Shown piece by piece: positions 35,501 to 64,000 of a stretch of DNA of 64,000 nt. Both the position numbers and the translations under genes were made by a program. The DNA is taken from NCBI GenBank assembly GCA_033439295.1, contig JAVTLE010000007.1:1550001-1614000 (forward strand). Direction: 5' to 3'. Each line of letters starts with the position of its first letter. The stretch's first letter is position 1. The stretch is from Deuterostichococcus epilithicus. Lineage: Eukaryota; Chlorophyta; Trebouxiophyceae; Prasiolales; Stichococcaceae. The notes under the pieces are model-generated. The model was not told where the DNA came from. It saw nothing but the letters and a program-made list of their open reading frames with translations, and did not search any database.

Positions 35501-37690
35501 GATTTCGGTCTCGCTGCAACCCACGTGCACGCCTCACGCTTGCGCCCGATGCCGGCGTCACCCTGGACAAGCCTGCTGTCGGCAGTTTGCACCTACTCTC
35601 CATACTAGGTTTGCACCTAATACTCTCAGCAGCAGTCTTGACAAAAGCCTTGCAGTGGCAGTGGCTCAGTGATAGACATTCAACAATCACCTGTACTTTG
35701 CGGCATCCACCAGCTGCAGCTCCACCGCCCTGTGCGCCGAAAGGGGCGCCTCGTCAATGGCCGCCTCCACCGCCTTCCGTGACAGCCCCCGTGACGCCGC
35801 AACGCCCTGCGGCATGGCCACATTGGCGTCAGCCAGCTGGAGCTGCGGGCGCGTGGCTTGCGCTGCCACGCTCGTGCGCACGCTGGTGGTTTGCGGCCAT
35901 GCCCCGAAAACCCCTACACCCTCGTCAGTGGGCTACAGCTCTCCTCCTGCCTGACAGCCAGTTCAGTGTCGTCTAACTGGACAGATGAACAGTACTCGTG
36001 CAGGGTGTGCTGACTGTGCCAATGCAACGAACGAGGGACTATTGATACTTGCACCTCTGCGACGCTGCCGACCATGGATGTCAGCAGCCGGTCCAGTGCG
36101 AGGCGCACGGGGGCGCTGTGCTTCTCCTCGGTGAAGCGTTCCGCTGCTCCCTTGAACTCCTCCCGTCGCAGAATGTGTCGCTTGACGGACCACCGGTCCA
36201 GCAGTCGGGCGAAGAAGTTGCCTTCTATTGCCAGGCCGCTGGCGCTCACCATGCCGGTGGGCTGCACATACACCTGCACGCATGACAGCGGGGTTTGGCT
36301 GTGAGACATTGGGTGCTGGAGGGCATGTCAGAGCTGGACACGCTGCACAGCAGCAGCCTTGCATCCAACGGCCGGCCGCCACCCAGAACCGGGATCAGGT
36401 GCAGCGCCGCAGACCTTGTCAAAGGCGGAGGCCAGGAAGTATGGCACGAAGCCCCCGGCGCCGGCCTCGCCGAATGTGTCCGAGTACGCAACGCACGCCG
36501 CCCGGCCGGATGCCTTCGACCTGGCAATGCACCAGCTATCAGCTATCGAGACATGATCGGACACGCTCCCGTGTCATCCGTGGTGAACGAGCGCGGTGAT
36601 GGCCACGACAAGATCAGGTGCCTGAGGGCGGCATCATGACAACCCATCGATGCACAGTCAGTTTGTGAGCATCGCTGCAGCAGCCTGGCCATGCTCTGCT
36701 CCAGTCCAGCCCGAGGGAACGCGCAGTGGCCGGCGAATGGACGGCGGGAGGCGGCCGGGCAATGGGGGAGCAGGCCAGAAATACCCGAGCTGTGAACAAA
36801 TAACCTGAAGTCCCGTACGGCCGCACGGAGTTCCTCCGCCACCGCCAGCCCGGCGCCGGCGGACGAGCTGCCGAGGTACGCCACGACGCCTCGCACCCTG
36901 TCGTCGCCGCCCGCCTCTGTCAGCGCCCGCACCACCTTGCGCACCTGGCCATCCGCAAAGGGCCCACAGAGATTCTTGCTGAAGAGCGTGTGCCTCCGAG
37001 ATGGCAACATACTACGAGTGCCTTGAGATGGCCAGCCGTGCAATCCTGCGGTTGGGCTGCTGCGCAAGCGTGCGCACCTCCAACTGCCTCGGCGCCTGAC
37101 CCAGCAGCTGCAGTGGGTTGAAGGGTACTGTCTCCACCACCTCGTGGGTTTCCAAGTCTGCAATTCAAGTCCACATATCAACAAGATGCCTGAGGGCATG
37201 CCGGGCCCGGCGCGCTTAGGGTAGAAATTTTTTCTACATCTTTTGAATTATATGTTTTTATAGACCTCACTTTATGCGTCGGTGCATTATCAGCTCCCGG
37301 CTGATTGATACGTGCTTGCTCATTACAACTAAGGGGGACGCTGCGGTGGTGCAAAACCGCACCTAGCTCCAGAAGGAATTTGTCCGGCAGCTTCATGGAC
37401 TCCTCCTGCAGGCGCTACGCCACAGAAGACGAGGCTTTGTTTAGCAGCTACAGCTACAGAAGCGCAGGGGGATTACATCGAATGTGGGATTCGTGAATCA
37501 TGTGCGCTTGTACATCGTGGCTTCTTTGAGAGCTGTTGCAGTGCACAGACTCAGGTGCGCTGGTAACTGGGTGGCCATCCACCTTTCGCAGGGGTACTAT
37601 GGTCTGAGACACAACGAGACCGCCTGCGAGTGTCGTGATCCCAACAACTGCCAGACCGTTGCGCACATAGCGCCCGGCTCTTCCGAACAT
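32596..37690 (-). CDS. SPPA: SppA-type serine peptidase, copy A
   Basis: Fifteen exons join in phase to 659 residues: 37583-37690, 37363-37405, 37078-37157, 36805-36974, 36415-36520, 36055-36273, 35697-35806, 35057-35292, 34760-34882, 34484-34589, 34208-34316, 33886-33975, 33414-33525, 33102-33196, 32596-32868. An N-terminal membrane helix (LAVVGITTLAGGLVVSQTIV) is followed by two tandem crotonase-like peptidase domains, as in bacterial and plant SppA. The general-base Lys is in EEFKGAAERF and the nucleophile Ser in SMGNYAASGGYYIA, so both members of the Ser/Lys dyad are kept. Plant SPPA is a light-induced thylakoid peptidase; location here is inferred. A glycine/lysine-rich insert sits in exon 8. 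The exon 4 acceptor is the least certain. Confidence 0.9.
35328..35460 (+). repeat. two diverged 66 bp repeats in an intron
   Basis: Inside the copy A intron between exons 35697-35806 and 35057-35292, a unit starting GTGACCAGCAGCTGCAAGG is followed by a second starting GTCACCAGCAGCTTCGATG, with shared GTCGG-GCCAG-CGAGCTGT-type interior. Confidence 0.65.
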
Positions 37691-38293
37691 TTGTGCAGAT
37701 CAAGTCCGATCTGGAAGTGGCAGCATGTGCAGTGAGCGCAATGCTCTAGACCGTGATGATGCGGACGAGACAATGGTCGGATATGAACTTTGGGTCGCGA
37801 ACGAATACTGCGCATCAGTAACGGCACCCTGCTCTTTGCGCTAGTCAACACGTGGTCGATGACGTAACCCCACCTCCAACATTCAATAAATACTGTCACT
37901 ACTGTCCCCGCAACTAAGGAAACGAGAACCAAAGTGCGAGCGGGTGGAATGCACTCAGGCGGGGTCGGCCAAGCAGCATGCATACGGCAGCACAGGCACC
38001 TGGCTCGAGGGTCAGGCTGACAGGAAGTGTCCCAGGTTTGTTAGACAGTGGCTGTAGGGACCAGTGTCAATAGACGAGGGCTATCGCAAGGTGTGTTGAT
38101 CAATGCGGTGTGCTATGCACCTAACGGCCCCCTTTAAATAAATACTGTCCCCGGACAAGGCAACGAAAGCCAAAGTGCGAGTGGGTGAAATTGATTCAGG
38201 CGTTCTCGGTCAAGCGTATACACAATTAAAAAACAGCACCTGACTCGAGGGGTTGGTGAGCTGTCTGACAAGCTTGCGATAAGCTTGGTTCCC
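37691..38293. other. intergenic between SppA copies, with direct repeat
   Basis: This 603 bp stretch is the promoter side of copy A and the 3' side of copy B. It contains two diverged direct copies of a sequence of about 120 bp, listed separately. Confidence 0.5.
37885..38252 (+). repeat. direct repeat pair in the SppA intergenic region
   Basis: A segment beginning AATAAATACTGTC and running through CCAAAGTGCGAGCGGGTG to CACCTGGCTCGAGG (37885-38012) recurs as 38137-38252 with AATAAATACTGTCCCCGG, CCAAAGTGCGAGTGGGTG and CACCTGACTCGAGG. The copies are 251 bp apart and clearly diverged. Confidence 0.75.
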
Positions 38294-41200
38294 TTAGCCA
38301 AAGTTTATGTCGCATGCAAGCTGCGGACCAGCCATTCCCGCAGCAATCGGCATGACGCCGTGCTGGGCGCATGCAGGTCTGCTGGCCGCCGCAGTCACCA
38401 GCAGCTCGCCGGCCGCCAGTGCCGCCAGCCAGCAGGCGACACCGCCGCCGCCGTCCATGCTGCCGGTCAGCATGGCGCCGAGCAGCAGCGTCGCTGCATG
38501 GGATGTCTGCATGCCAGCAGGCAAGCTGGCGGCGGCGAGGGCCGGCAGGGGGTGCTCGCCGCTCATGGCGCTGTGCACCAGCTGCAGAAAGGTGCCAGGG
38601 CGCGGGTAGTACACCACCTCTGAAACCTGCAAGCAGGGGTGACGCAGCTCTAACGAGAGGTTTCGTAACTTATATTACCGTCATTACAGTATTGGCAGTT
38701 CCGTCATTGCTGGCAATATGAGGGCAAGTGACCATGCAAAATACCTCCTTGACACGAGCATAAGTTCGAGTCTGGGTCACGGTGTCCCAATGCCCTGACC
38801 TCTGGCGTCAGGCCCGTTTCCTGTCGTGCGACCTCGACTGCATCCTGCAGCCCGCCAAGTCGGTCAACGAGCCCCAGTGCGAGCGCATCTGCCCCTGAAA
38901 CAGAGAGAAGGAGCCCGGAGATCTACTCCACTCTCTGGTGAGGCCTGATGTTGATATGCCGGCTCTTCACGTCGTTTGCTCTTCAAGCCACTGCGCACAG
39001 AATTCGGAATGCACAGCAGCTTTCTGCGGAATCTGTGCTGGCAGAGTCGCGCCTGACCAACCGCGGCCCTTTGCGAGTGCGCGCGTCGCCTCGAGGCTGA
39101 GATGTCGCCCTTCTGACACGCGCTCCAGAAAGTGGGTGTATACATTGTCCGTGGCAGCCTCTACCTGCAGCGTTGCCACCGCATGCATTGCAAGTGAGGC
39201 GTGCGCAGCTCATGAAGCAGGGTGGGGCTGGCATTGCCTTGCACCCATGAAGCGGCTTTTAAAACGGGTTCAACAAGCACTTTCAAAGGCGGTGAGCATG
39301 ATCGAACACACCTGCCAATGCCAGCAAGGCAGGCTTTGTGCACACCTGCCGTCGCTGCAGCTTTGTGAAGTCAGTGAAGCGTGACATCACCGTTGCGTTG
39401 ACACCGCCCGTTGCCACGATGTCTGTAGTGATCCCCACCTGCCATCACAGCGCAACCCCAGCAGCTGCAACTGTGTCCTCTGGTTGTCCGATGCACTGCC
39501 AGCCGGCGTGAGCCGGTGCAACAAGGACAGCCAACCGCGAAGTGCTTGTGGACGGCATCACAAGGTCAGTGCCCGTACATGTGCTTGAATTCGAACCTGG
39601 AGGAGGGCGCCAGCTATGTTCAGCTTGCCGGCGACGACGCCAATTGCGCCTGTGACGGTCGTGGGCTGCGCCACGATGCGCGTCGCGGCCGTGCTGATGT
39701 AGTACCTGTTGTATGGCGCATCCACGAGGAACAAAGAGATCACAGAGCAGGGCATCGCATTGTGGGTGCCGTTATTGTCTCGCAAGCTGCCGGGACGTTG
39801 AGACTTGATGCGGCTCACAGCAGCCAGGTGCCGAGTTCAGGTGACGGACATGGTCAGGGCTCGGACAAGGACAATTTCAAGTGTACGAATCGACCTACGC
39901 GCCACTTGATGCATAGTTGCCCATGCTGACGATGACAGGCTTGCCGCCGGCTTTCAGCAGCGACAACTCCCGATGTATCGTGTCTGATGCCACTGCTGAG
40001 CCACCTGCACTTTGCAAGCCAATCGAGCGTTTGCTAGCGCCATGCAAGTCTCACTGCACGATGCATGGCGCCAGCGGCACTGCTTCTCCAACCCTTTGCC
40101 ACATCGCTGCCGCTGCAGGGCCTGCCACATTGCACACTCATGTCGCACCACGCCAAGAGAACATGCCCCCACACAGTGGTTCTGTGTGAGGGTTCAGGTT
40201 CCTCACCTGGGCTGTTGACACGCAAGACGACTGCCTTGACAGCTGGGCTCTCCCGCAGCTGCCTCAAAACGCCGCACAACCGCCTGCTGTCCAGAAGCGG
40301 TGCGCCGCTGGGGCTCCTCCCCAGGCTGCCTGCAAACCCAAGGAGATACTGACCGACCTGTGGGCATGTTTCGCCACATGACCCTGAAGTCAGGACTCGG
40401 AGCAGTTGTGCGCAGTAGGCTGAGACAGAGGGATGATGATGACCGCTGGACCAGAAAGCGCAGGTGTCATGCAGCGGCATGCAGGTTTCTTGCACGGATA
40501 TTCATGTACCGGCCGGAGCTCGTCCGCACTTTCAGCAATGACGCCCTCAGCGTGCACGACGGCAATGTGCGGCGCTGCTGGCGCGGTGCTGTCGCTGCTG
40601 CTGGACCTGCCATTCCATAGGCTGCGCAGCTGCGGCAGCAGACCCTGCTGCGCCTGCTGCTCTGCCGCTTCGGCCTCCATGACCCGCAGGTAGCGGCTGA
40701 CTGGCACCCTGGCTGGGGTCCGACCATCCGCTGCAAGGTTGGCTGACGCCTCCGCCACAGCCTCGTCCCTGAGCAGGAGCAGCTCGGACGTGTAGACGCT
40801 CCAAGGCATGTTTGTCATTCGCATGTTTTTCGCATCTTGACAGCCCGAGCAGCTGGCAAGGACAGCACGAGATCTTAGAGCTGATGGTGTCGGGAAGAAC
40901 TGCATCACCTGTAGCATGCGCCATCCACCAGCTGCAGCTCGACTGCCCTGTCCACACGCAGCGGTGCCTCATCGAAGGCAGCCTGCACCGCTGGCTGCGT
41001 GAGACCTCGCGACACAGCAATGCCCTGCACAGATTGGAGGACGAGCGTCCAGTCATGGATCGGTGTGCAGGTTGAAATGCTGTCCACTGCCATACACATG
41101 CCTCATGCACACCAGAAACCATGGCAACACTGCCACCGGCCGACCCATCATCATCCACTAGCACCCATCTGAACCATGCTGAAGTCACGAAAATTTGATA

Positions 41201-42717
41201 CGAATTTGTAGCACCTGCGTGACGCTGTCGACCATGGAGGCCAGCAGCTGCTGCAGTGCCTGGCGCTGGGGGCCGCTGTACTTCTCCTCCGTCAGGCGCT
41301 CCACTGCCGACTTGTACTCGTCCCGAACGACGAGATGCCGGCGAATGGACCACCGGTCCAGCAGCCTGCGGAAGAAGATGCCCTCGACCGCGAGGCCGCT
41401 GACGTTGACAGTGCCCGTTGGCTGCACATACACCTGCGCCCGACAGTGGGGCCGCCGTCATGCCGATTCCGATTTGCACTCGAGCCTGCATGGCAGCAGC
41501 CACCTGGCTGAAGCATCTTGGATGAGGATGTCCGTGACAGAGCCACTCAGCGATACAACCCAGGACGGCCTAATTAAATCTCTTGCATCTTGCAGCTTCC
41601 ATGTAAGCAGTAAGCGCACTTTGTCAAAAGCGGATGCCAGGAAGTACGAAGCTGTGCCTGGCAAGCCGCCCTCGCCAAAGGAGTCCGAGAACGCAATGCA
41701 GGGGGCCCTGCCCGCTGCCTTTTCCCTGCAGGCAACATGGACCAGTGTTCAAGTTGTGCTCGGAGGACCTTGGAATAGTGCCAGCAGGGGAGTGGGACGG
41801 GCAGCAAACAAATCATTGGACAACGTTGCTCTGAACCCTGGTCAGATTTGTCAGCAACTGCAAAAGAAGCTCATTTCTCCATCTGACACCGTTAAGCAAA
41901 ATCGAACCCTGTGTTCACCTGAACTTGTGCACTGCGGCGCGCAGTTCCTGGACCACGGCCAAGCCGGCGCTGGCGGTCGTGGCATCTCCGATGTATGCCA
42001 CCAAACCCCTCACCCTCTCATCGCCGGCGGAGTGCGACAGCGCCCGCACTACCCTCCGCATCTGGTCCGCAGGACACAGCGCCAGCTCCGAGCAAGCGAT
42101 CTCACGGTTTGCGCGGCCTAAGTCAAATGTTATGCGAGTCGGCGGTAGTGCCGTGCGAACCTCAACATTTGACATGCCGAAAGCCGCGCAATTACCTCGA
42201 GCCGCCGCACATACTGGCCCAGGCATTGCAGAGGGTTGACCGGTGCCACTTCAACAAGCTCATGCGTCTCCAGATCTGCACGGCACAAATATGGTCTGAC
42301 ACGCGCAAATATCCAAGTGGACACGCTTGGAATTCTGCCGTTGACTGCGGCTTGTGATGCTTTCATCATAGGTCGCTGCCAACGTCAGCTAATGGTTGTA
42401 CAGGATCGTGGTACCTAGCTCGAGAAGGAACGTGCTTGGCAGACGCGCCTCCTGCATCTCAGGAGGACACAGCTGCTACAACATCATGTTTCCTCGTTGA
42501 CATGTGTTTTGTCATCAAATCACAGAAACATCACTCAGAAGGACGCATGATGGGTCCATTTTGGGCTCAAAGCGCGGCAGCGTGGCAACGGTGGAGATCC
42601 TGCGCTCGCCTCGCGTGAGGGAACGATGGCTTGCGACGCCAGAAAGCCACCTCCTAGAACTGCAAATCCTACGAATGCAAAGCCGTCCCGCATGTAACGC
42701 CCAGCGCTTTGAAACAT
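38294..42717 (-). CDS. SPPA: SppA-type serine peptidase, copy B
   Basis: Fifteen exons join in phase to 680 residues: 42610-42717, 42415-42451, 42196-42275, 41919-42085, 41620-41725, 41215-41433, 40909-41024, 40530-40768, 40207-40329, 39899-40004, 39597-39705, 39346-39438, 39053-39164, 38800-38894, 38294-38626. Intron positions match copy A one for one. In the 73-residue exon 6 I count 47 identical residues. The dyad is kept: Lys in DEYKSAVERL and Ser in SMGNYASSGAYYIST. The glycine after the serine-glycine pair is alanine here, a change from copy A near the nucleophile. The C-terminal exon is 20 codons longer and different. Introns 1 and 13 need GC donors. The exon 4 acceptor is uncertain. 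It is head-to-head with the PhoD-like gene. Confidence 0.88.
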
Positions 42718-50192: not shown

Positions 50193-53100
50193 TCATGAGA
50201 GCAAGGCAGGCACCTGCTCGGCGGCCACCTCGGCTCCCAGGAGCGCGAGCGTGCTTGCCGCCGCCGAGCGCGCTGCCTCCTGGGCGGAAAACACTTCCCC
50301 CAGCTGCTGCCGCAGGCCGCTGACCACGTCTTCTGCAGCGAATCGCGCCCCCCGCTCCGCCTCCAGCTCGACGGCCGCCCTGCGGGGAGCGGTTGGAGGC
50401 GCGTCGGTGCACGAGTCTGATGTGTCTGCAGAGCCCACCCCCGGTTGTATTGCCGCGTCTCCGCGCAGGCAGCATCAGCGAAGTCGGCAATGAGCGGTGA
50501 TGCGAGTGCGGTAAAAGCGCCATTTGGTCAAACGACAGGCAAGCGTGCCGGATTGGCAACCGGGCGAAGGTCTCCATGCGATTATATCGAGGCTGACTCC
50601 GACAGCCAGTTATGCGTTGCAAATCATGAACGTCGGCATCCAAGCCTAGCAAACCCCCCGACCGCAGGTGCAACAGGCACTGAGAGCCTCCGCCGCGGCA
50701 AGGCCTATGCACTTCGGATGTTGGTCAACAACCCAATATGTCTTGTGTGTTTGTTGGATGGGAAAGAGCGCACTTGGAGTATGCGGTCCGTGCCTGCTCG
50801 ACCTCGCGCTGCAGGTTGACGACGTCGCCCCCCTGCGTCCCAGATCAGCGTCGGTGCTCAGGCCAAACGGCACGCCATTATGTACGACAGCGATGCAGTC
50901 GTTGCCCGCGGCACATTGAGGGTTGGCTGAGGCGCTCTGCGCCGCTGGGCGGGATGCTCCGATATTTCATGGCGGCAGGCGAACCAGCTGTGAGCAGGGC
51001 TTGCAGCCCGGACTCACCAGCACATGCTTGGCGGGCCAAGGGCTTCCACCCGGACAGGCTGCTTAGGGCAGGTCGCTGAGTGCGCGGTCTGCCGGCACTG
51101 GATGCGATGCCCCAAGGCTCCCTGCCGTCCCGGCACACAGCCGGCAAAGCAGCATCTGCTCGAGCGACACATCTCAGTGACGAGGAGTCGCACCTGCTCG
51201 GAGCCGGCATGGGCGGCCATGACGCGGAGGGACAGCGCCTTGATGCGGGAGGACAGCTCCTCACGCTGCGTGTCCATCTTGGCCTGCAGCGCCTCATTGC
51301 TGCCCTGCAGCTGCGACGCCCTGCCCGATGTGATCGCCACCTGCAGGCGGGGTTTTGCACGTGTCACCGGAAACGTGTCGCTCTGGCTGGTTCGGCACAC
51401 ATTCGCAGGGTTGGCAGGCGGAACCATGTTTGGCCTCTAGTCGGTGCGCTTCGCCCTTGGCGCCCATGTCCCTTCAGGGGTTCTCCATCTGTGCCACTCA
51501 AGAGTTGGATTTTCCAGGCCCAAGGGCGTATACAGCCGCACCCGTACAGCTGCACACACTGCGACGCCAGCCGCTCCGGTCGCGTTGCGCCTGCAGCCTG
51601 ATCGTGTGACCCAACTCGACACAACATGGATGCCGGAGCTCGGTCAAGTTGAGCTGCGGCGCACTCACCTGACGCCGCCCACCCCCTCCAGGGCTTTGCT
51701 GACCCCTTGACGCTGACCCCTCTGACTCTCAACTGAACGCACCTGGGAAATGAGGTCGTTCACGCGGGACTTGAGTTCGGTGACTTCGCAGCGTGCCGCC
51801 TCACTGGCACCCTTCTCCGCTTCCAGCTGCTTCTGCGTCGCTGCCACCTGCAGGCGGAGTTTTGCACATGTCCCCGGAGACTGGCTGATTTCAGTACATG
51901 TTCGCAGGGTTTCTCGGTCTGTGCCACTCAAGAGTTGGAAAAGTGTTTTCCAGGCCCAAGGGCGCATACAGCTGTCTGCACCATCCGTGTTGCTGCCACC
52001 TGCACAGCTGCGCAGTGCCTCTGAAGCAGCGAGCAACACGCACTGCGCCCCTGGCCGCTCCCGTCGCGCTGGGCATCAGTATTGCTCCCCGTCCGCTGCT
52101 GGCACTGCGCTGTGCCTGCCACCTGACCCTGTGACCCAACTCGACACGACAAGAGGCTGGAGCTCGGTCAAGGTGAGTTGCGGCGCACTCACCTGACGCC
52201 GCCCACTCCCCCCAGGGCTTTGCTGACCCCTTGACGCTGACCCCTCTGACTCCTCAACTGAACGCACCTGATCATTGAGGGCGATCACGCGGGAGTAGAG
52301 GTTGGTGATTCTGGAGCGCGCCGTCTCGCTTGCGCCCTTCTCCACCGCCAGCTGCTTCTCCGTCCTCGCCACCTGCAGGCGGGGTTTTGCACATGTCACC
52401 GGAAACGTGTCGCTCTGGCTGCTTGCAGTACATGTTCGCAGAGATGGCAGATGGAACCATGTTTAGCCGCCAATAGGTGCGCTTTGCCCTTGGCGCCCGA
52501 TGCCTCTTCAGGGGTTCTCCATTTGTGCCACCCAAGAGTAAGTTCTTTCCAGGCCCAAGGGCACAGACAGCTGTCTGCACCATCCGTGTTGCGGCCACAG
52601 CCCAGCTGCGCAGTGCCTTTGAAGCAGCGAGCGATATGCACTGCGCCCCCGGCCGCTCCCATTGCGCTGGGCACCAGTACTGCCCCCCGTCTGCTGCTGG
52701 CACTGCGCTGCGCCTGCCGCCTGACCGTGTGACCAAACTCGACACAACATGGAGGCTGGAGACCGGTACATTTGAGCTGCGGTGCACCCACCTGACGCCG
52801 CCCACCCACTCCAGGGCTTTGCTGACCCCTTGGCGCTGACCCCTCTGACTCTCAACTGAACGCACCTGGGACATGAGGCTGCCCACGCGGGAACTGAGTT
52901 TGGTGACATCAGAGCGCGCCGCCACGCCGGCGCCCTTCTCCGCCTCCAGCCGCTTCTCCGTCTCCCCCACCTGCAGGCGGAGTTTTGCACATGTCACCAG
53001 AAACATGTCACTCTGGCTGGTTTCTGTACATGTTTGCAGGGTTGGCAGGTGCGCTTCGCCCCATGCCTTTTTCGGGGTTCTCCGTCCGTGCCACTCAAGA

Positions 53101-56100
53101 GTTGACTCTCTCCAGGCCCAAGGGGATGAACAGCTGTCTGCACCATGAATGTTGCTGCTACATGCCCAGCTGCGCAGTGCTTGTCAAGCAGCGAGCGATA
53201 TGCACTGCACCCCCGGCCGCTCCCATCGCGCTGGGAACGATTACTGCTCCCCGTCTGCTGCTGGCACTGCGCTGCGCTGCAGCCTAACCGTGTGCCCCAA
53301 CTCGACACAACATGGAGGCTGGAGCTCGGTCAAGCTGAGCTGCGGCGCACACACCTGACGCCGCCCATCCACTCCAGGGCTTTGCTGACCCCTTGACGCT
53401 GACCCCTCTGATTCCTCAACTGAGCGCACCTGATCATTGAGGGCGATCACGCGGGAGTAGAGGTTGGTGATTCTGGAGCGCGCCGTCTCGCCGGCGCCCT
53501 TCTCCACTGCCAGCTGCTTCTCCGTCCTCGCCACCTGTAAGCGGGGTTTTGCACACGTCACCGGAAACATGTCGCTCTGGCTGGTTTCAGTACATGTTCG
53601 CAGGGTTGGCAGGCGGAACCATGTTTGGCCGCCAGTTGGTGCGATTAGCCCTTGGCGCCCAATGCCTCTTCAGGGGTTCTCCATCTGTGTCACCCGAGAG
53701 AGTTGATTGTTTCCAGGCCCAAGGGCACATACAGCTGTCTGCACCATCCGTGTGGCTGCCACAATCCCAGCTGCGCAGTGCCTGTGAAGCAGCAAGCAAT
53801 ATGCACTGCGCTCCCGTCGCGCTGGGCTCCATAATGCTCCCTGTCTGCTGCTGGCACTGCGCTGCGCCTGCTGCCTGACTGTGTGACCCATCTCGACAGA
53901 ACATAAAGACTGGAACCCAATCAAGCTGAGCTGCGGCGCATTCACCTGACGCTGCCCACCCCCTCCAGGGCTTTGCTGACCCCTCTGGCTCTCAACTGAA
54001 CGCACCTGGGACGTGAGGCTGCCCACGCGGGACTCGAGCTTGGTGACATGGGAGCGCGCCGCCACGCCGGCGCCCTTCTCCGCCTCCAGCCGCTTCTCCG
54101 TCTCCCCCACCTACAGGCGGGGTTTCGCACATGTCACCAGAAACACGTCGCTTTGGCTGGTTTCAGTACATGTTCGCAGGGTTGGCAGATGGAACCATGT
54201 TGGCCGACGGTTGGTGCGATTCGCCCCATGCCTCTTTCGTGCTTTTCCGTCTGTGCCACTCAAAAGTGAGTTGTTTCTGGGCCCCAAAGCGCATACAGCT
54301 GTCTGATCCATCCGTATTGCTGCCACATGCCCAGCTGCGCAGTGCCTCTGAAGCAGCGAGCAACACGCGCTGCGCCCCCGACCGCTCCCGTCGCGCTGGG
54401 CACCAGTATTGCACCCCGTCTGCTGCTGGCACTGCGCTGTGCCTGCCACCTGACCGTGTGACTTTACTCGACAAAACACGGAGGCTGGAGCTCGGTCAAG
54501 TTGAGCTGCGGCGCACACACCTGACGCCGCCCACCCCTCCAGAGCTTTGCTGACCCCTTGACGCTGACCCCTCTGACATTCAACTGAACGCACCTGATCA
54601 TTGAGGGCGATCACGCGGGAGTAGAGGTTGGTGATTCTGGAGCGCGCCGTCTCGCCGGCGCCCTTCTCCACCGCCAGCTGCTTCTCCGTCCTCGCCACCT
54701 GCAGGCGGATGTTTGCACATGTAACCGGAAATGTGTCGCTCCGGCTGGTTTCAGTACAAGTTCGCAGGGTTGGCAGGCGGAACCATGTTGGGCCGCCAGT
54801 TGGTGCGCTTTGCCCTTGGCACCCAATGCTTCTTCAGGGGTTCTCTGTGCCACCCGAGAGAGTTGATTGTTTCCAGGCCCAAGGGCACATACAGCTGTCT
54901 GCACCATCCGTGTTGCTGCCACAGCCCAGCTGCGCAGTGCCTCTGAAGCAGCGGGCAATATGCACTGCGCCCCCAGCCGCTCCCGTTGCGCTGGGCACCA
55001 GTACTGCTCCCTTTCTGCTGCTGGCCCTGCGCTGTGCCTGCCGCCTGACAGTGTGACTAAACTTGACAACACGGAGCCCGGTCAAGCTGAGCTGCGGCGC
55101 ACTCGCCTGACGACGCCCGCCCCCTCCAGGGCTTTGCTGACCCCTTGGCGCTGACCCCTCTGACCCTCAACTGAACGTACCTGGGACGTGAGGCTGCCCA
55201 CGCGGGACTCGAGCTTGGTGACATTGGAGCGCGCCGCCACGCCGGCGCCCTTCTCCGCCTCCAGCCGCTTCTCCGTCTCCCCCACCTACAGGCGGGGTTT
55301 CGCACATGTCACCAGAAACACGTCGCTTTGGCTGGTTTCAGTACATGTTCGCAGGGTTGGCAGATGGAACCATGTTGGCCGACAGTTGGTGCGATTCGCC
55401 CCATACCTCTTTCGGGGTTCTCCATCTGTGCAACTCAAAAGTTGGTTCCTACCGGGCGCAAGGGCATATCTGCTGTCTGCTTCATCCGTGTTGCTGCCAC
55501 ATGCCCAGCTGCGCAGTGCCTGTGAGCCAGCGAGCAACACGCACTGCGCCCCCGGCTGCTCCCGTCGCGCTGGGAACTAGTACTGCTCCCCGTCTGCTGC
55601 TGGCACTGCGCTGTGCCTGCCGCTTGACCGTGTGGCGGAACTCGACGAACAATGAAGGCTGGAGTGTGGTCAAATTGAGCTGCGGCGCACACACCTGACG
55701 CCGCCCACCTCCTCCAGGGATTTGCTGACCCCTTGACGCTGACCCCTCTGACTCCTCAACTGAACGCACCTGATCATTGAGGGCGATCACGCGGGAGTAG
55801 AGGTTGGTGATTCTGGAGCGCGCCGTCTCGCTGGTGCCCTTCTCCACCGTCAGCTGCTTCTCGGTCCTTGCCACCTGCAGGCAGAGTTTTGCACACGTCA
55901 CTGAAACAGGTCGCTCTGGCTGCTTGCAGTACATGTTCGCAGGGTTGGCAGGCGGAACCATGTTTGGCCGCCAGTAGGTGCGCTTTGCCCTTGGCGCCTA
56001 ATGCCTCTTCAGGGGTTCCCCATCTGTGCCACCCGAGAGTAAGTTCTTTCGAGGCCCAAGGGCGCAGACAGCTGTCTGCACCATCCGTGTTGCTGCCACA

Positions 56101-59100
56101 TTCCCAGCGGCGCATTGCCTGTGAAGCAGCGAGTAACACGCACTGCGCCCCCGTCCGCTTCCATCGCAATGGGCACCATATTGCTCCCCGTCTGCCGCTG
56201 GCACTGCGCTGCGCCTGCCGCCTGACCGTGAGACAAACTCGACAAAACAGGGGGGCGGGGGCGGGGGGGGGGGTTGGAGCTCGGTCAAGCTGAGCTGCGG
56301 CGCACACACCTGACGCCGCCCACCCCCTCCAGGGCTTTGCTGACCCTTTGACGCTGACCCCTCTGACTCTCAACTGAACGCACCTGGGACATGAGGCTGC
56401 CCACGCGGGACTCGAGCTTGGTGACATCAGAACGCGCCGCCGCGCCGGCGCCCTTCTCCGCCTCCAACCGCTTCTCTGTCTCCCCAACCTGGGTGACCGG
56501 AAACACATATATGTCACCCTGGCTGGTTTCAGTACATGTTCGCAGGGTTGGCAGATGGTACCATGTTTGGCCGCCAGTTGGTGCGGTTTGCCCTTGGCGC
56601 CCAACGCCTCTTCAGGGGTTCTCCATCGGTGCCACCCAAGAGGAAGTTCCTTTCAGGCCCAAGGGCGCATATGCACCATCCTGTTGCTGCCATATGCCCA
56701 GCTGTATAGTGCCTCTGAAACAGCGAGCAACACGCACTGCGCCCCCGGCCGCTCCCGTCGCGCTGGGCACCAGTACTGCTCCCCGTCTGCTGCTGGCGCT
56801 GCGCCGCGCCTGCCGCCTGACCGTGTGGCAGACCTCGACAGACAATGGAGACTGTAGCCCGGTCAAGTTGAGCTGCGGCGCACACACCTGACGCCGCCCA
56901 CCCCTCCNGGGCTTTGCTGACCCCATGACGCTGACCCCTCTGACTCTCAACTGAACGCACCTGATCATTGAGGGCGATCACGCGGGAGTAGAGGTTGGTG
57001 ACTCTGGAGCGCGCCGTCTCGCTGGTGCCCTTCTCCACCGCCAGCTGCTTCTCTGTCCTCGCCACCTGCAGGCGGGGTTTTGCACACGTCACTGACCCCA
57101 GGTCGGCTGATTTCAGTACAAGTTCGCAGGGTTGGCAAATGGTACCATGTTTGGCCGCCGGTTGGTCCGCTTTGCCCTTGGCGCCCAATGCTTCTTCAGG
57201 GGTTCTCTGTGCCACCCAAAAGTAAGTTCCTTCCAGGCCCAAGGGCGCAGACAGTCGTCTGCACCATCCTGTTGCTGCCACATGCCCAGCTGCGCAGTGC
57301 CTCTGAAGCAGCGAGCAATACGCACTGCGCCCCGGCAGCTTCCATTGCACTGGGTTTGAGTATTGCTCCCCGTTTGAGTATTGCCTGCCACCTGACCCTG
57401 TGACCAGCATTCAGCCGTACATGGAGGCTGGAGCTCGGTGAAGGTGAGCCGCGGCGCACACACCTGATGCCGCCCACCCCCTCCAAGGCTTTGCTGACCC
57501 CTTGACGCTGACCCCTCTGACTCTCAACTGAACGCACCTGGGACATGAGGCTGCCCACGCGGGAACTGAGTTTTGTGATATCGGAGCGCGCCGCCACGCC
57601 GGCGCCCTTCTCCGCCTCCAGCCGCTTCTCCGTCTCCCCCACCTACAGGCGGGGTTTCGCACATGTCACCAGAAACACGTCGCTTTGGCTGGTTTCAGTA
57701 CATGTTCGCAGGGTTGGCAGATGGAACCATGTTGGCCGACAGTTGGTGCGATTCGCCCCATGCCTCTTTCGTGCTTTTCCGTCTGTGCCACTCAAAAGTG
57801 AGTTGTTTCTGGGCCCCAAAGCGCATACAGCTGTCTGATCCATCCGTATTGCTGCCACATGCCCAGCTGCGCAGTGCCTCTGAAGCAGCGAGCAACACGC
57901 GCTGCGCCCCCGACCGCTCCCGTCGCGCTGGGCACCAGTATTGCCCCCCGTCTGCTGCTGGCACTGCGCTGTGCCTGCCACCTGACCGTGTGACTTTACT
58001 CGACAAAACACGGAGGCTGGAGCTCGGTCAAGTTGAGCTGCGGCGCACACACCTGACGCCGCCCACCCCTCCAGGGCTTTGCTGACCCCTTGACGCTGAC
58101 CCCTCTGACATTCAACTGAATGCACCTGATCATTGAGGGCGATCACGCGGGAGTAGAGGTTGGTGATTCTGGAGCGCGCCGTCTCGCCGGCGCCCTTCTC
58201 CACCGCCAGCTGCTTCTCCGTCCTCGCCACCTGTAAGCGGGGTTTTGCACATGTCACCGGAAACATGTCGCTCTGGCTGGTTTCAGTACATGGTTGGCAG
58301 GCGGAACCATGTTTGGCCGCGAGTTGGTGCCTTTCGAGCTTCGCCCTTGGCGCCCAATGCCTCTTCAGGGGTTCTCCATTTGTGCCACCCAAGAGTAAGT
58401 TCTTTCCAGGCCCAAGGGCACAGACAGCTGTCTGCACCATCCGTGTTGCTGCCGCATGCCCAGCTGTGCAGTGCCTCTGAAGCTGCGAGCAATATGCACT
58501 GCGCCCCCAGCCGCTCCCGTCACGCTGGGAACCAGTACTGCTCCCCGTCCGCTGCTGGCACTGCGCTGCGTCTGCCGCCTGACCGCGTGACCAAACTTGA
58601 CATATCATAAAGACTGTAGCCCGGTCAAGCTGAGCTGCGGCGCACTCACCTGACGCCGCCCACCCCCTCCAAGGCTTTGCTGACCCCTTGACGCTGACCC
58701 CTCTGACTCTCAACTGAACGCACCTGGGACATGAGGCTGCCCACACGGGAACTGAGTTTGTTGATATCGGAGCGCGCCACTACGCCGGCGCCCTTCTCTG
58801 CCTCCAGCCGCTTCTCCGTCTCCGCCACCTGCAAGCGGAGTTTTGCACATGTAACTGAAGTATGTCACTTTGGTCAGTTTCAGTACCTTTTCGTAGGGTT
58901 GGCAGGCAGAACCATGGTCGGCCACCAAGTGGTGCGCTTCCGCCCATGCCTCGTCAGGGGTTCTCCGTGTGTGCCACTCAAGTAAGTTCTTTCCAGGCCC
59001 AGGGGCGTACACAGCTATCTGCACCATCCGTGTTGCTGCCACATGCCCAGCTGTGCAGTGCATCTGAAGCAGCGAGCAATATGCACTGCACCCCCTGCCG

Positions 59101-62100
59101 CTCGCGCCGCGCTGGGCACCAGTATTGCTCCCCGTCTGCTGCTGGCACTGCGCTGCGCCTGCCACCTGACCCTGTGACCCAACTCGACACAACATGGAGG
59201 CTAAAGCCCGGTCAAGCTGAGCTGCGGCGCACACACCTGACGCCGCCCACCCCCTCCAGGGCTTTGCCGACCCCTTGACGCTGACCACTCTGACTCTCAA
59301 CTGAACGCACCTGATCGTTGAGGGCGATCACGCGGGAGTAGAGGTTGGTGATTCTGGAGCGCGCCGTCTCGCCGGCGCCCTTCTCCACCTCCAGCTGCTT
59401 CTCCGTCCTCGCCACCTGCAGGCGGAGTTTTGCACACGTCACCGGAAACATGTCGCTCTGGCTGCTTGCAGTACATGGTCGCAGAGATGGCAGATGGAAC
59501 CATGTTTGGCCCACAGTTGGTGCGCCTTGCGCTTCGCCCTTGGCGCCTAAGGCCTCTTCAGGGGTTTCCCATCTGTGCCACCCAAGAGTAAGCGCTTTCC
59601 AGACCCAAGGACGCATACAGCTGTCTGCACCATCCGTGTTGCTGCCACATGCCCAGCTGCGCAGTGCTTGTCAAGCAGCGAGTAACACGCACTGCGCCCC
59701 CGGCCGCTCCCGTCGCGATGGGCTCCCCGTCTGCTGCCGGCACTGCGCAGCGCTGCCGCCTGACAGTGTGACCAACCCCGACACAGCATGGAGGCTGGAG
59801 CCCGGTCAAACTGAGCTGCAGCACAGTCGCCCACCCCATCCAGGGCGTTGCTGACGCCTTGACGCTGACCCCTCTGACTCTCAACTGAACGTACCTGGGA
59901 CATGAGGCTGCCCACGCGGGAACTGAGTTTTGTGATATCGGAGCGCGCCGCCACGCCGGCGCCCTTCTCCGCCTCCAACCGCTTCTCCGCGTCCCCCACC
60001 TGCAGGCAGAGGTTTGCACGTGTAATCGGAAATGTGGCAATCTGGCTGGTTTCAGTACATATTCGCAGGGTTGGCAGGCGCAATCATGTTTGGCCGCCAG
60101 TTGGTGCTTCTCGCCCGATGCCGCTTCAGGGGTTCTTCATCTGTGCCACTCAAAAAATCGATTCGTTCCGGGCCCAAGGGCGCATACAGCTGTCTGCTTT
60201 ATCTGCTGTCTGCTTCATCCGTGTTGCTGCCACATGCCCAGCTGTGCAGTGCCTCTGAAGCAGCGAGCAACTCGCACTGCGCCCCCGACCGCTCCCATCG
60301 CGCTGTGCACAAGTATTGCTCCCGTCTGCTGCTGGCACTGGTCTGCGCCTGCCGCTTAACCGTGTGACTTTACTCGACTGACAAGGGAGCCCGGTCAAGT
60401 TGAGCTGCGGCGCACACACCTGACGCCGCCCACCCCCTCCAGGGCTTTGCTGACCCCTTGACGCTGACCACTCTGAGTCTCCACCGAACGCACCTGGGAA
60501 TTGAGGGCGATCACGCGGGAGTAGAGGTTGGTGATTCTGGAGCGCGCTGTCTCGCTAGCGCCCTTCTCCACCGCCAGTTGCTTCTCTGTCCTCGCCACCT
60601 GCAGGCGGGGTTTTGCACATGTCACCGGAAACATGTCGCTCTGGCTGGTTTCAGTACATGTTCGCAGGGTTGGCAGGCGCAATCATTTTGGCCGCGAGTT
60701 GGTGCCTTTCGAGCTTCGCCCTTGGCGCCCAATGCCTCTTCAGGGGTTCTCCATTTGTGCCAGCCAAGAGTAAGTTGTTTCCAGGCCCAAGGGCGCATAC
60801 AGCTGTCTGCACCATCCGTATTGCTGCCACATGCCCAGCTGTGCAGTGCCTCTGAAGCTGCGAGCAATATGCACTGCGCCCCCAGCCGCTCCCGTCACGC
60901 TGGGAACCAGTACTGCTCCCCGTCCGCTGCTGGCACTGCGCTGCGTCTGCCGCCTGACCGCGTGACCAAACTTGACATATCATAAAGACTGTAGCCCGGT
61001 CAAGCTGAGCTGCGGCGCACTCACCTGACGCCGCCCACCCCCTCCAGCGCTGACCCCTTGACGCTGACCCCTCTGACTCTCAACTGAACGCACCTGGGAC
61101 ATGAGGCTGCCCAAGCGGAAATTGACTTTGGTGACATCGGAGCGCGCCGCCATGCCGGCGCCCTTCTCCGCCTCCAGCAGCTTCTCTGTCTCCGCCACCT
61201 GTAATCGGGGTTTTGCACGTGTAACTGAAACATGTCACTCTGGCTGCTTTCAGTCCAAGTTCGCAAGGTTGGCAGGCGCAATCATTTTGGCTGCCAGATG
61301 GTGCGCTTCGCCCCATGCCTCTTTCGGGGTCCTCCGGCTGTGCATCTCAAGAGTTGGTTCCTACCGGGCGCAAGGGCATATCTGCTGTCTGCTTTATCTG
61401 CTGTCTGCACCATAGTGCTGCTGCCTCATGCCCAGCTGCGCAGTGCTTGTCAAGCAGCGAGTAACACGCACTGCGCCCCCGGCCGCTCCCGTCGCGATGG
61501 GCTCCCCGTCTGCTGCCGGCACTGCGCAGCGCTGCTGCCTGACAGTGTGACCCAACTCGACACAACACGGAGGCTGTGAGCTCGGTCAAGTTGAGCTGCG
61601 GCGCACACACCTGACGCCGCCCACCCCCTCCAGGGCTTTGCTGACCCCTCTGACTCCTCAACTGAGCGCACCTGGTCGTTGAGGGCGATCACGCGGGAGT
61701 AGAGGTTCTTCATTCTGGAGCGCGCCGTCTCGGCGGCGTCCTTTTGCACCGCCAGCTGCTTCTCCGTCGCTGCCACCTGCAGGCAGAGGTTTGCACATGT
61801 AACCGGAAACATGCCACTCTGGCTGATTTCAGTACATGTTCGCAGGGTTTGCAGGCGAAACCATGTTTGGCCGCCAGTTGGTGCGCTTCGCCCTTGGCGC
61901 CCGATGCTTCTTCAGGGGTTCTCCATTTGTGCCAGCCAAGAGTAAGTTGTTTCCAGGCCCAAGGGCGTATACAGCTGTCTGCACCATCCGTGTTGCTGCC
62001 ACATGCCCAGCTGCGCAGTGCCTGTGAAGCAGCGAGCAATATGCACCTCCCGTCGCGATGGGCACCAGTATTGCTCCCCATCTGCTGCTGACATTGCACT

Positions 62101-64000
62101 GCGCCTGCCGCCTGATCGTGTGACAGACTCGTCAAAGCAGGAGGGCTGCAACCGCCTTTTGCTTCGCATGCGGAGCTTCGGCCCTCTCTGCGCTCCGCCT
62201 CCAGAGCATCCAGCAGCGGGCGCCGGACTGCCGCCTCTGCGCGCTGGGCTGGGCGCATGGGCCTCGGTGCAAGTCAGCGCAACCTCAGAACCGCCACGGG
62301 CGCCCGTCGGGCTTTGGGTGCGGCTGCAGCAGGGGTGCAGCCGAAGGGGCGACGCTCACCCGCACCGTGCGGTCGGTGTGCAGCCAGGCGCCCGCACCTT
62401 GCGGGACATGCGGTCGGAGGAGGCCTGCGCCTCTGCGCGCAGCTTCTCGCTGAGGGAGCGGTACTCGTCGACCGCCGCAAGCGTGAACTGCAGCCGCTGC
62501 TTCAGGTCCACCACCTCCAGCCTCTCCTTCAGGTCCGCCACCTGCTTTGCCTCCTGCGCCACCAGCTGCGGCTCCCGCCTGCGCGTGGCAGCAGGAAGCA
62601 GCATCAGATCTAATGAACGTACACAACCTCGGGACTCGGACCTTGACGGGTAGGGGCTTCGAGGAGCTGCACGTGGCGCCCGCCTTTTATGCGACAGCTC
62701 CTGCCTGCGCGCAGCCGCCGGAAGCAGGCTGGCAGACGGCAGCATTGTGAGAGAAGAAAGAATGCTCGCCATTGCACGCTTCCCACTGCAGCAGTTGCCG
62801 CCTGACTGCTTGACAGCGGGAAAAGCATGCAAGTTATCTCCACCTTGACGTGCGTCTTGTTGTCCAGGCCTTTCCGAGCAGACGCAGCCAGGGCACATCC
62901 GGCATGCCATGCTCAGAGCTTGCCACTGGATCAGAATCAGCGCCCCGATGGGTTCCCTGTCAAGCATTTGCCCCAAGAGCATGCGCGAGCAGAGAGGCAG
63001 AAGGGTGCTTACTTGCTCTCTGCCTCGATCTCTGCCTCGACACCCTCGGCCTCCTTCTCCTTAGGCTTCATCAGATACAGCAGCCCCGCGAGCGATCCCG
63101 CTGCGAGAAGGCCCGGTGCTTTCTGCAAGAGCCACAGCCAGGGCATCAAGGACTGTGGAACAGCCAGCCTTGCAGCCATAACCAAGAACACTGCGTCTGA
63201 GAAACCAGTTCCAGACATGTTATGCAGAAACTTGGGGTAGCTTTGATTCCATTTATATTCTTGATATATCAAAATTAGAAGACGTTTGCGCCAGTTGCCA
63301 GCATCATCCCGCAGACGACAGGCTGAACAGCTGTACCTCCATTTCCTCGACCCGTGCGCTGCCGAGCGTTTTGACACATGCCATGCTGTCGTGTCCGCAG
63401 ACCACGGCATTGGAGCCTGTACCTAGAATAGCACACGCACTGACAGCGCACCAGCAGATCAAAGGGGTTGAAGCCGTCTTCGTCCTGTTCCGCACTCGGC
63501 GCGGTGGCTGGCTTAGGCTCAGGCTTGGGCTGTTGGCGCGCCGACTGGATGTCAGCACGCGGGTTGCCCGATGCTGCTGGCTTGTCCTGCGAATCACGGT
63601 GCAGGGTTTGTGATGACGCTGGCCTCCTGTCCTTCTCTGCATGGGCACATGCTGCACACTGCAGATGAGTCTTAGCATCCGTTTTAACATGCTTGCCTGC
63701 TTCGCAGAGGGCGCCTGCGCCTGCTTCGCAGAGGGCGCCTGTGCCTGCTTCGCAGAGGGCGCCTGCGCCTGCTTCAAAGAGGGCGCCTGCGCCTGCTGCG
63801 GGGCTGCTGCCGGCGCCTCAGCCTTGCGCGCCGCCACTGCCTTTGCTGCCGACGCCTCCGCCTCAGCCTTGCGCGCTGCCATTGCCTTTGCCGCTGACGC
63901 CTCCGCCTCTGCCTTTACCCGCTGCGCGTTAGCGGCCTGCGCCGCAGCTCGTGCCTGTTCCGCCTCCTGCGCCTCAGCCGCTTGACCCTCCGCCGCACGC
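50193..64000 (-). CDS. large coiled-coil membrane protein with amplified 35-residue exons (5' partial)
   Basis: I do not recognise the family. Exons that join in phase, from 5' to 3': 63697 to beyond the window end, 63441-63586, 63337-63385, 63013-63122, 62398-62578, then eighteen 105 bp exons (61672-61776 down to 51743-51847), then 51194-51340, 50774-50832 and 50193-50379 with the stop. The visible protein has an Ala/Lys/Glu-rich region with KAEAEASAAKA and KQAQAPSA repeats, a Pro-rich piece, one likely membrane helix (APGLLAAGSLAGLLYLM), a 60-residue coiled-coil exon (AQEAKQVADLKERL), 630 residues of repeated heptads, a 49-residue exon and a coiled-coil C-terminus ending EQVPALLS. The intron after 63697 needs a GC donor (CAG then GCAAGC). 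The link between exon 62398-62578 and the array is in phase, but an extra exon near 62200 is possible. Role as a membrane-anchored tether is inference. Confidence 0.72.
51194..62135 (-). repeat. tandem array of exon-intron units coding heptad repeats
   Basis: Eighteen exons of exactly 105 bp: 51743-51847, 52268-52372, 52866-52970, 53430-53534, 54006-54110, 54594-54698, 55181-55285, 55770-55874, 56384-56488, 56961-57065, 57538-57642, 58126-58230, 58724-58828, 59311-59415, 59895-59999, 60494-60598, 61094-61198, 61672-61776. They start 525-614 bp apart. Type A begins VGETEKRLEAEKGAG and ends VGSLMSQ; type B begins VARTEKQLAVEKGAG and ends VIALNDQ. They alternate strictly except that the 3'-most exon is a third variant (VAATQKQLEAEKGAS, ending VNDLISQ). 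Every exon is flanked by phase 0 introns with AG before GTG at the acceptor. Introns of about 460-510 bp are recognisably the same sequence throughout, and part of it continues before 61776 to about 62135 and after exon 51194-51340. An N stands at 56908. Confidence 0.92.
56248..56275 (+). repeat. poly-G tract in an array intron
   Basis: A run of G broken only by a few C bases lies in one intron of the coiled-coil array and is absent from the sister introns. Confidence 0.85.
63697..63950 (-). repeat. short repeats coding KQAQAPSA and KAEAEASAAKA
   Basis: On the minus strand four tandem 24 bp units code AQAPSAKQ-type repeats (about 63697-63792), preceded by two 45 bp units coding KAEAEASAAKAxAAR (about 63830-63930). 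Both lie in the exon that runs to the window end. Confidence 0.85.

What the first reader, a model, noticed from the sequence alone, without database searches (positions are those of the whole stretch)
51743..61776. A coiled-coil rod built by amplification of one exon module
Eighteen consecutive exons are each exactly 105 bp, phase 0 on both sides, and each codes 35 residues. Two types, A and B, alternate, so the amplified unit is two exons plus two introns, about 1.18 kb. Introns are as obviously related as exons, which argues for recent or ongoing amplification rather than ancient internal repeats as in tropomyosin or spectrin. Because all junctions are phase 0, any number of modules keeps the frame, so rod length could vary between strains or by exon skipping. 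I know of no described algal gene of this form.
Basis: partly seen in the sequence, partly recalled or inferred. Interest (0 to 1): 0.88.

Follow-up and report, generated by a model that had tools for sequence, protein, structure and literature searches.

The report
Rod gene with eighteen alternating exons
A eukaryotic gene, probably from a green alga, encodes a long coiled-coil rod with eighteen equal 35-residue exons of two alternating kinds whose introns are nearly the same throughout, so the two exon kinds appear to be kept apart while the DNA between them is shared.

Summary
On the minus strand, 61776-51743, there are 18 exons of exactly 105 bp, all phase 0 with GT-AG junctions and no stops, strictly alternating B and A (the last is A-like but divergent). 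The array is coding: no indels in 1,890 exon bases, and substitutions within types are constrained. Each module is five heptads; a COILS-type score puts position a at the first residue of all 18 modules. So frame and heptad register both survive any change in module number.

New here: introns scarcely distinguish the exon types. Net A/B divergence is 18.8% in exons and 1.6% in introns. There are 16 fixed A/B differences in 105 exon sites (15 amino-acid-changing) and none in 482 intron columns. The protein differences fall on the outer b and c positions (9 of 10) and spare the core (a/d: 1 of 10).

Best reading: a two-exon unit amplified by recombination in introns. Introns kept exchanging, also across types, while selection kept A and B distinct and alternating. 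The nearest case found in print is spider MaSp2 silk genes. No relative was found, but no algal genome could be searched. Variable rod length and exon skipping remain untested. Positive selection on A/B is suggested, not proven.

The parts
61672..61776 (-). module exon 1, type B (VAATEKQLAVQKDAAETARSRMKNLYSRVIALNDQ); diverged end copy
61094..61198 (-). module exon 2, type A
60494..60598 (-). module exon 3, type B
59895..59999 (-). module exon 4, type A
59311..59415 (-). module exon 5, type B
58724..58828 (-). module exon 6, type A
58126..58230 (-). module exon 7, type B; identical to exon 13
57538..57642 (-). module exon 8, type A
56961..57065 (-). module exon 9, type B
56384..56488 (-). module exon 10, type A
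55770..55874 (-). module exon 11, type B
55181..55285 (-). module exon 12, type A
54594..54698 (-). module exon 13, type B
54006..54110 (-). module exon 14, type A
53430..53534 (-). module exon 15, type B
52866..52970 (-). module exon 16, type A
52268..52372 (-). module exon 17, type B
51743..51847 (-). module exon 18, A-like, divergent end copy
51341..61671 (-). the 18 introns that follow the module exons, one sequence family, 402-509 bp each (interleaved with the exons)
   Evidence: alignment; profile built from them finds all 18
61777..62397 (-). intron before module 1; its last 432 bp (62208-61777) belong to the intron family, the rest does not
62398..62578 (-). upstream exon, coiled-coil by score over about two thirds of its residues, ends phase 0 into module 1
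   Evidence: gene model
63013..63122 (-). upstream exon with a short hydrophobic stretch APGLLAAGSLAGLLYLM, a possible membrane anchor (read by eye, no predictor run)
63452..63586 (-). upstream exon (linker ending FNPFDLL)
63697..63999 (-). Ala-rich upstream exon, incomplete: runs off the window end; proposed GC donor
51194..51340 (-). downstream exon, 147 bp = 49 residues = 7 heptads in length, phase 0
50774..50832 (-). downstream exon, 59 bp
50193..50379 (-). proposed last exon with stop codon TGA (end of the proposed 1,003-residue partial protein)

Best explanation
The gene encodes a long coiled-coil rod, possibly membrane-anchored near its N-terminal side. Its middle, 630 residues, is 18 modules of 35 residues, one exon each. 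Shown from sequence: the modules are coding and constrained; each is exactly five heptads with position a at its first residue, so adding or removing modules keeps both frame and coil register; two kinds alternate strictly; their differences lie mostly on the outer face (b, c) and spare the core; the introns are one family, hardly sorted by exon kind. Inferred: the array grew by unequal recombination in the introns with a B-intron-A-intron unit; gene conversion keeps mixing introns, also between A and B contexts; selection removes exchanges that would blend the exon kinds or break the alternation. Inferred function: a rod of about 94 nm (0.1485 nm per residue, recalled) whose core is uniform and whose surface repeats every 70 residues, about 10.4 nm, giving a periodic set of lateral contacts for packing or for a partner; module number sets its length.
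For: 18 equal phase-0 exons and gene model. Constraint: 0 indels in 1,890 exon bases against 50 gap intervals (27 merged) in 8,542 intron bases; no stop and no broken AG/GT, P = 0.0005 in a neutral star-tree simulation of 17 modules; omega within types 0.16 (F3x4) or 0.52 (equal codon frequencies). Coil: 93% of array residues at P>0.5, register a at the first residue of 18 of 18 modules, 0 of 100 column permutations of the first 6 modules reach the score; single-module helix, pLDDT 95.1. Alternation: exon tree separates types with 1 change over 17 exons, intron tree 2 changes over 16 introns, P = 0.0018. Exons split, introns not: net A/B divergence 0.188 (0.124-0.254) in exons, 0.016 (0.010-0.022) in introns; fixed differences 16 of 105 against 0 of 482. 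Intron exchange: 12 of 153 intron pairs hold significant shared tracts, 4 of the 12 across types; exon and adjoining intron distances agree clearly in only 1 of 4 comparisons. Outer face: A/B replacements at b/c 9 of 10, elsewhere 6 of 25, P = 0.011 after allowing for the choice of positions.
Against: No transcript, no second strain and no relative was seen, so splicing, copy-number change and function are inferred. A plain hydrophobicity Fourier test gives only weak support for period 3.5 (P = 0.16 and 0.055); with a binary scale 3.89 is stronger. The COILS matrix was written from memory; the core has weak places (E at d, G at a), only 46% of the array reaches P>0.9, and the downstream exons score lower (48% above 0.5, none above 0.9). 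Four cross-type intron tracts are few, two have P of 0.022 and 0.048, and three of the four involve intron 17, which has a long deletion. B exons and the introns after them do correlate (r = 0.43, P = 0.009), as joint duplication would give. The hydrophobic stretch was not scored by a predictor. The gene start lies outside the window.
Confidence: 0.72

Rival explanations
1. The A/B split is old. The exons simply kept ordinary accumulated differences, while intron conversion wiped out intron differences between types; no positive selection and no special outer-face function is needed.
For: Cross-type intron tracts exist (4 of 12 significant). With codon frequencies modelled (F3x4), omega on the A/B branch is 0.83, not above 1 (P = 0.81 against 1). 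Fixed replacements per replacement site against fixed synonymous per synonymous site: 15 of 78 against 1 of 27, P = 0.065, not significant. Low homology between A and B exons would itself stop conversion at exon edges (inference).
Against: Synonymous sites sit among the changed ones, yet only 1 of 16 fixed differences is synonymous, against 22 of 54 within-type variants (P = 0.013; non-singletons 9 of 17, P = 0.0066). A/B dS is 0.19 while dN is 0.39.
Confidence: 0.4
2. Introner-type origin: an old intronless A/B repeat gene received copies of one mobile intron at each repeat boundary.
For: Introns are nearly blind to exon type, and cross-type divergence falls from 0.357 in the last 35 exon columns to 0.076 in the first 30 intron columns. 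Introners are reported mainly from fast-evolving lineages such as green algae (PMC9860276, two passages).
Against: The intron profile finds no copy elsewhere in the 64 kb; other junctions of the same gene give no match to it (against the model); introns keep some type signal; exons within a type are also recent copies. Exact searches of two collections for a conserved intron piece found nothing, but these hold viral and prokaryotic contigs.
Confidence: 0.08
3. A length-polymorphic or alternatively spliced rod in which module number or exon choice is the point, for instance by exon skipping.
For: All module junctions are phase 0 and every module is five whole heptads, so any skip keeps frame and register.
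Against: Nothing shows skipping. Strict alternation over 17 exons suggests that single-module changes are rare or rejected.
Confidence: 0.2
4. Array miscopied by genome assembly, or a decayed non-coding array.
For: Long similar repeats are hard to assemble; a single N lies at 56908; exons 7 and 13 are identical and their introns 99%.
Against: No two introns are identical; no module carries a stop, indel or broken AG/GT; variants within types lean modestly to third positions, 16, 14 and 24 by codon position.
Confidence: 0.05

Closest known systems
Argiope MaSp2 dragline silk genes (PMC9779670, abstract and passages seen)
   Same: Structural protein gene of similarly sized exons separated by homogenised repetitive introns; in some copies two exons plus two introns form the repeated core unit.
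   Different: [quoted passage not shown] average intron similarity within a gene 97.6%). Here exons alternate sharply while one intron family serves both, at about 85% identity. Coiled coil, not silk; no homology claimed.
Flagelliform spidroin genes (named in PMC9779670 as having repetitive, homogenised introns)
   Same: Repetitive homogenised introns between repeat exons.
   Different: Not compared by sequence; protein type unrelated.
Nebulin, expanded in units of seven domains (PMC1553488, passages)
   Same: A multi-exon unit is the amplified block of a long structural protein, with the same exon pattern per block.
   Different: Exon junctions are under-represented in the linkers between nebulin domains, whereas here each 35-residue module is one exon; two-module rather than seven-module period.
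Fibrillar collagen 54-bp exons; tropomyosin and myosin rods (recalled, no call)
   Same: Exon or repeat length tied to the structural period of the protein.
   Different: Recalled as ancient repeats without intron homology between repeats.

Membership tests
Long coiled-coil proteins (structural class) | Continuous heptads with a hydrophobic a/d core | tested here: met
   register a at the first residue of 18 of 18 modules, 93% of array residues P>0.5, GCN4 and myoglobin controls as expected; matrix recalled. The Fourier test is weaker.
Intermediate filament / crescentin / spectrin / ATG16 and other Pfam coiled-coil families | Score above the curated Pfam cut-off | tested here: not met
   three pieces (upstream exons, modules 1-6, modules 17-18 plus downstream exons; modules 7-16 not sent): Rod_CreS 19.5 against 100, Spectrin 15.3 against 29.9, Filament 14.5 against 40, ATG16 27.6 against 33.7. 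The best 25 of 50 and 25 of 27 families were shown; the upstream piece matched none.
Phage_tail_NK (PF16532) | Tail-needle family match over the profile | tested here: not met
   29.1 bits exceeds the cut-off of 27, but the best stretch matches only profile positions 3-32 of 175; taken as coiled-coil cross-match in a eukaryotic gene.
Genes with homogenised repetitive introns (spidroin-like organisation) | Introns of one gene more alike than expected and exchanging | tested here: met
   one intron family, 12 of 153 pairs with significant shared tracts. Organisation only, not homology.
Genes with homogenised repetitive introns (spidroin-like organisation) | Alternating exons accompanied by alternating intron types | tested here: not met
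   0 of 482 intron columns fixed between contexts, against 16 of 105 exon sites; only weak intron type signal.
Introner elements | Copies of the intron family inserted in many genes | tested here: inconclusive
   none elsewhere in this 64-kb window; the rest of the genome is not held.
Thylakoid or envelope anchored coiled-coil proteins such as MFP1 (considered from memory) | N-terminal plastid transit peptide and membrane anchor | not testable with these tools
   The N-terminus lies beyond the window end; the hydrophobic stretch was read by eye only.

The most novel reading that the evidence does not exclude
A and B are two surface states of one coiled-coil module, driven apart by positive selection on the outer face (b, c) while core and introns stayed common, and locked in strict alternation. 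The rod would be a molecular ruler or lattice element with a surface period of about 10.4 nm, and intron exchange would lengthen or shorten it without disturbing frame, register or pattern. It would then be a natural case in which selection on exon order can be read directly against freely mixing introns.
Probability: 0.3. Interest if true: 0.8.

Novelty: new variant of a known kind. Interest (0 to 1): 0.6.

Why it matters
Amplified exon modules are known, and in the spider silk genes read here exons and introns are homogenised together. In this gene neighbouring DNA behaves in two ways: introns mix across the array, exons stay in two alternating kinds whose fixed differences are nearly all amino-acid changes, mostly on the rod surface. 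That makes it a clean place to separate recombination from selection within one gene, and to test whether rod length changes by whole modules. It also shows exon length fitted to the heptad (five whole heptads per exon), so length can evolve without loss of coil register.

Tried and rejected
First gene model included a 91-bp exon at 62243-62153. It broke the frame, and its 3' part belongs to the intron family; dropped.

Codon-model searches were wrong: a clade-selection error counted part of the data twice. They are replaced and not used. One search ended in an error after printing its earlier parts; its tree-label test was redone. Its self-BLAST reported no hit of 200 bp at 95%, which I put down to the settings (with other settings lists long hits of lower identity).

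The tract test on exon plus intron (23 of 153 pairs, 4 cross-type) is confounded, because same-type exons share type-diagnostic sites. The intron-only test is used instead. It does not flag introns 2/6 and 7/13, because it scores runs against each pair's overall likeness.

Considered and rejected: the conserved first 74 or so intron bases being coding. Indels of 1, 5 and 14 bases there break the frame in several copies (alignment).

No relative found: viral contigs with a two-module peptide (37 pattern stretches, none confirmed), genome contigs with the 62578-62398 exon plus module 1 (129 stretches, none confirmed), PDB sequences with that exon plus modules 1-5 (0), Pfam with three pieces. These collections hold viruses and prokaryotes, curated families or solved structures; no algal genome was searched. 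Foldseek of the one-module helix against viral models gave 0 matches, uninformative for a single helix. No Rfam family at gathering score and no tRNA in the window. For the neighbours, 30 of the 130 stop-to-stop ORFs of 150 aa or more were sent to Pfam; three had a match at E up to 0.001. A further ten pieces (six ORFs, one of them sent before, and four S49 fragments) followed.
Full report
Observation. The array is on the minus strand. Scanning for AG-105 nt-GT stretches open in frame 0 lists many chance stretches (160 in the window); read by eye, 18 of them are related exons from 61776 down to 51743, each exactly 105 bp, each beginning with V and ending with Q, phase 0 on both sides. They alternate B, A, B, A; the 18th is A-like but divergent (75-79% to A exons, 71-76% to B exons). 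The 18 following introns are 402-509 bp and form one family. A profile built from them finds all of them, the last 432 bp of the 621-bp intron before exon 1, and nothing else in the 64 kb at E up to 1. The other junctions of the gene give no match to it.

Gene. Splice-consistent exons on both sides extend the frame: an Ala-rich exon that runs off the window, a linker exon, an exon with a short hydrophobic stretch, a 181-bp exon that enters module 1 in phase 0, then after the array exons of 147 and 59 bp and a last one with a TGA ending at 50193. The partial protein is 1,003 residues, of which 630 are the array. No transcript was available, so the model rests on frame and splice sites.

Is it coding? 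Introns carry 50 distinct gap intervals (27 after merging overlaps) in 8,542 bases; the exons have none in 1,890 (P = 1.6e-5, or 2.5e-3 with merged gaps). Simulating neutral change at the intron rate, 17 modules with no stop and no broken AG/GT occur with P = 0.0005; stops alone are a weaker test (P = 0.057 for none). Variants within types by codon position are 16, 14 and 24, a modest lean to third positions. Within-type omega is 0.16 with F3x4 and 0.52 with equal codon frequencies. Taken together the array is under protein-level constraint.

Is it a coiled coil? With the COILS matrix written from memory, 93% of array residues have P>0.5 and 46% P>0.9. The best register puts a at the first residue of all 18 modules. 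Permuting the 35 columns of the first 6 modules never reaches the score (0 of 100). GCN4 scores high and myoglobin does not. The downstream exons score lower (48% above 0.5, none above 0.9) (all). AlphaFold2 on the 18-module alignment gives one helix, residues 2-34, pLDDT 95.1 (the first GTG is read there as M in most rows). Against this, a Fourier test of hydrophobicity is only weakly significant at 3.5 (P = 0.16 with Kyte-Doolittle, 0.055 binary), and 3.89 is stronger on the binary scale. Pfam, given three pieces without modules 7-16, shows only generic coiled-coil likeness; of the families shown (25 of 50 and 25 of 27) one passes its cut-off, a short cross-match to a phage tail needle family. 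I take coiled coil as likely, about 0.9.

What differs between A and B. Fifteen of 35 residues differ between the type consensuses. By heptad position: a 1, b 4, c 5, d 0, e 2, f 1, g 2. So 9 of 10 b/c positions differ, against 6 of 25 elsewhere; allowing for the choice of the best pair of positions, P = 0.011. The register (a at the first residue) had been assumed before one search returned the same one. The core is shared; the outer face alternates.

Exons against introns. For modules 1-16, the net divergence between types is 0.188 in exons (bootstrap 0.124-0.254) and 0.016 in introns (0.010-0.022). Sites with no base shared between types: 16 of 105 in exons (8 A and 9 B exons, exon 18 left out), 0 of 482 intron columns (8 and 8 introns, columns with at least 6 letters in each) (Fisher P = 4e-13). 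By a looser rule of 75% in each type, 20 exon sites and 4 intron columns differ. Cross-type divergence is 0.357 in the last 35 exon columns and 0.076 in the first 30 intron columns. Introns are not wholly without type signal: the intron tree needs 2 type changes, fewer than shuffled labels (P = 0.0018), and even separations are on average slightly closer than odd ones. A two-exon, two-intron unit was therefore most likely the amplified block.

Exchange. In an intron-only run test, 12 of 153 pairs show significant shared tracts of 50-141 columns; 8 are same-type and 4 cross-type. The clearest cross-type case is introns 1 and 4, which also share an 11-base deletion (alignment). Three of the four cross-type pairs involve intron 17. 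Introns 2/6 are 98% and 7/13 99% alike over their length. Exon distances and adjoining intron distances correlate for B exons with the following intron (r = 0.43, P = 0.009) but not clearly in the other three comparisons (r = -0.07, -0.34, 0.33; P = 0.53, 0.90, 0.07), so exon and intron histories are largely uncoupled.

Selection on the split. Fixed differences are 15 replacement and 1 synonymous; within-type variants 32 and 22 (P = 0.013; non-singletons 8 and 9, P = 0.0066). Modules are not a population sample, so this is an analogue of the McDonald-Kreitman test, not the test itself, and the one synonymous call lies in codon 26, where the base-by-base A consensus is a mosaic of different A codons. 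Against the numbers of sites alone the excess is not significant (15 of 78 against 1 of 27, P = 0.065). Mean dN and dS between types are 0.39 and 0.19. In a branch model, omega between types exceeds omega within types (0.83 against 0.16, P = 0.03 with F3x4; 4.9 against 0.52, P = 0.001 with equal frequencies), but it exceeds 1 only with equal frequencies (P = 0.015; with F3x4 P = 0.81). Positive selection is thus suggested, and an older split with intron homogenisation is not excluded.

How it most likely works. Recombination in long similar introns adds and removes whole modules and spreads intron variants. Five whole heptads per exon keep the coil in register. Selection keeps A and B distinct and alternating. 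The result would be a rod with a uniform core and a surface period of 70 residues. The first sentence rests on shown similarity and tracts; the selection on order and the use of the surface period are inference.

Setting. Neighbouring minus-strand genes include a COP9 signalosome subunit 1 and two diverged tandem S49 peptidase genes. They point to a eukaryote. The best-scoring solved CSN1 chain (4lct) is, as I recall, from Arabidopsis, and GC-rich GTGCG donors with CTGCAG acceptors are, as I recall, usual in green algae. The organism stays unidentified.

Literature. Ten searches of an open-access library; four listed nothing. The nearest case is the Argiope MaSp2 genes (PMC9779670, abstract and passages), whose authors know of no other eukaryotic gene with two alternating homogenised intron types. 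The present gene has the complementary arrangement: alternating exons, one intron family. PMC1553488 (passages) gives nebulin's seven-domain unit. PMC9860276 (two passages) was looked at for introners. Other papers were seen only in search listings.

Noticed in passing
window, roughly 33500-38000 and 39300-42700, minus strand: Two diverged tandem copies of an S49 peptidase (SppA-like) gene, 5.2-5.4 kb apart; minus-frame pieces up to 72% identical; PF01343 in 2 of 4 pieces of the first copy.
   Followed up: partly
window 11201-12827, minus strand: COP9 signalosome subunit 1 gene: PF10602 in two ORFs; all 7 PDB sequences matched by 11201-11971 are CSN1.
   Followed up: partly
introns of the array, about 74 bp after the donor: A decoy donor-like site inside a GC-rich potential hairpin. 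GTGAGTG stands there in 3 of 9 introns after A exons and 1 of 9 after B; GTGTGTG in 2 of 9 and 8 of 9; the others differ or lack it. Its use would shift the frame.
   Followed up: partly
first ~90 alignment columns of the introns: The 5' part of the introns differs by only 6-8% between copies; other blocks range from 8% to 28%. Splice sites alone would not explain so long a conserved stretch; function unknown.
   Followed up: no
window 63694-63925, minus strand: Short internal repeats in the Ala-rich exon: a 24-bp unit in 4.3 copies (PSxKQAQA) and a 45-bp unit in 2.3 copies.
   Followed up: no
window 14967-15719, plus strand: Weak leucine-rich repeat matches, below Pfam cut-offs.
   Followed up: no
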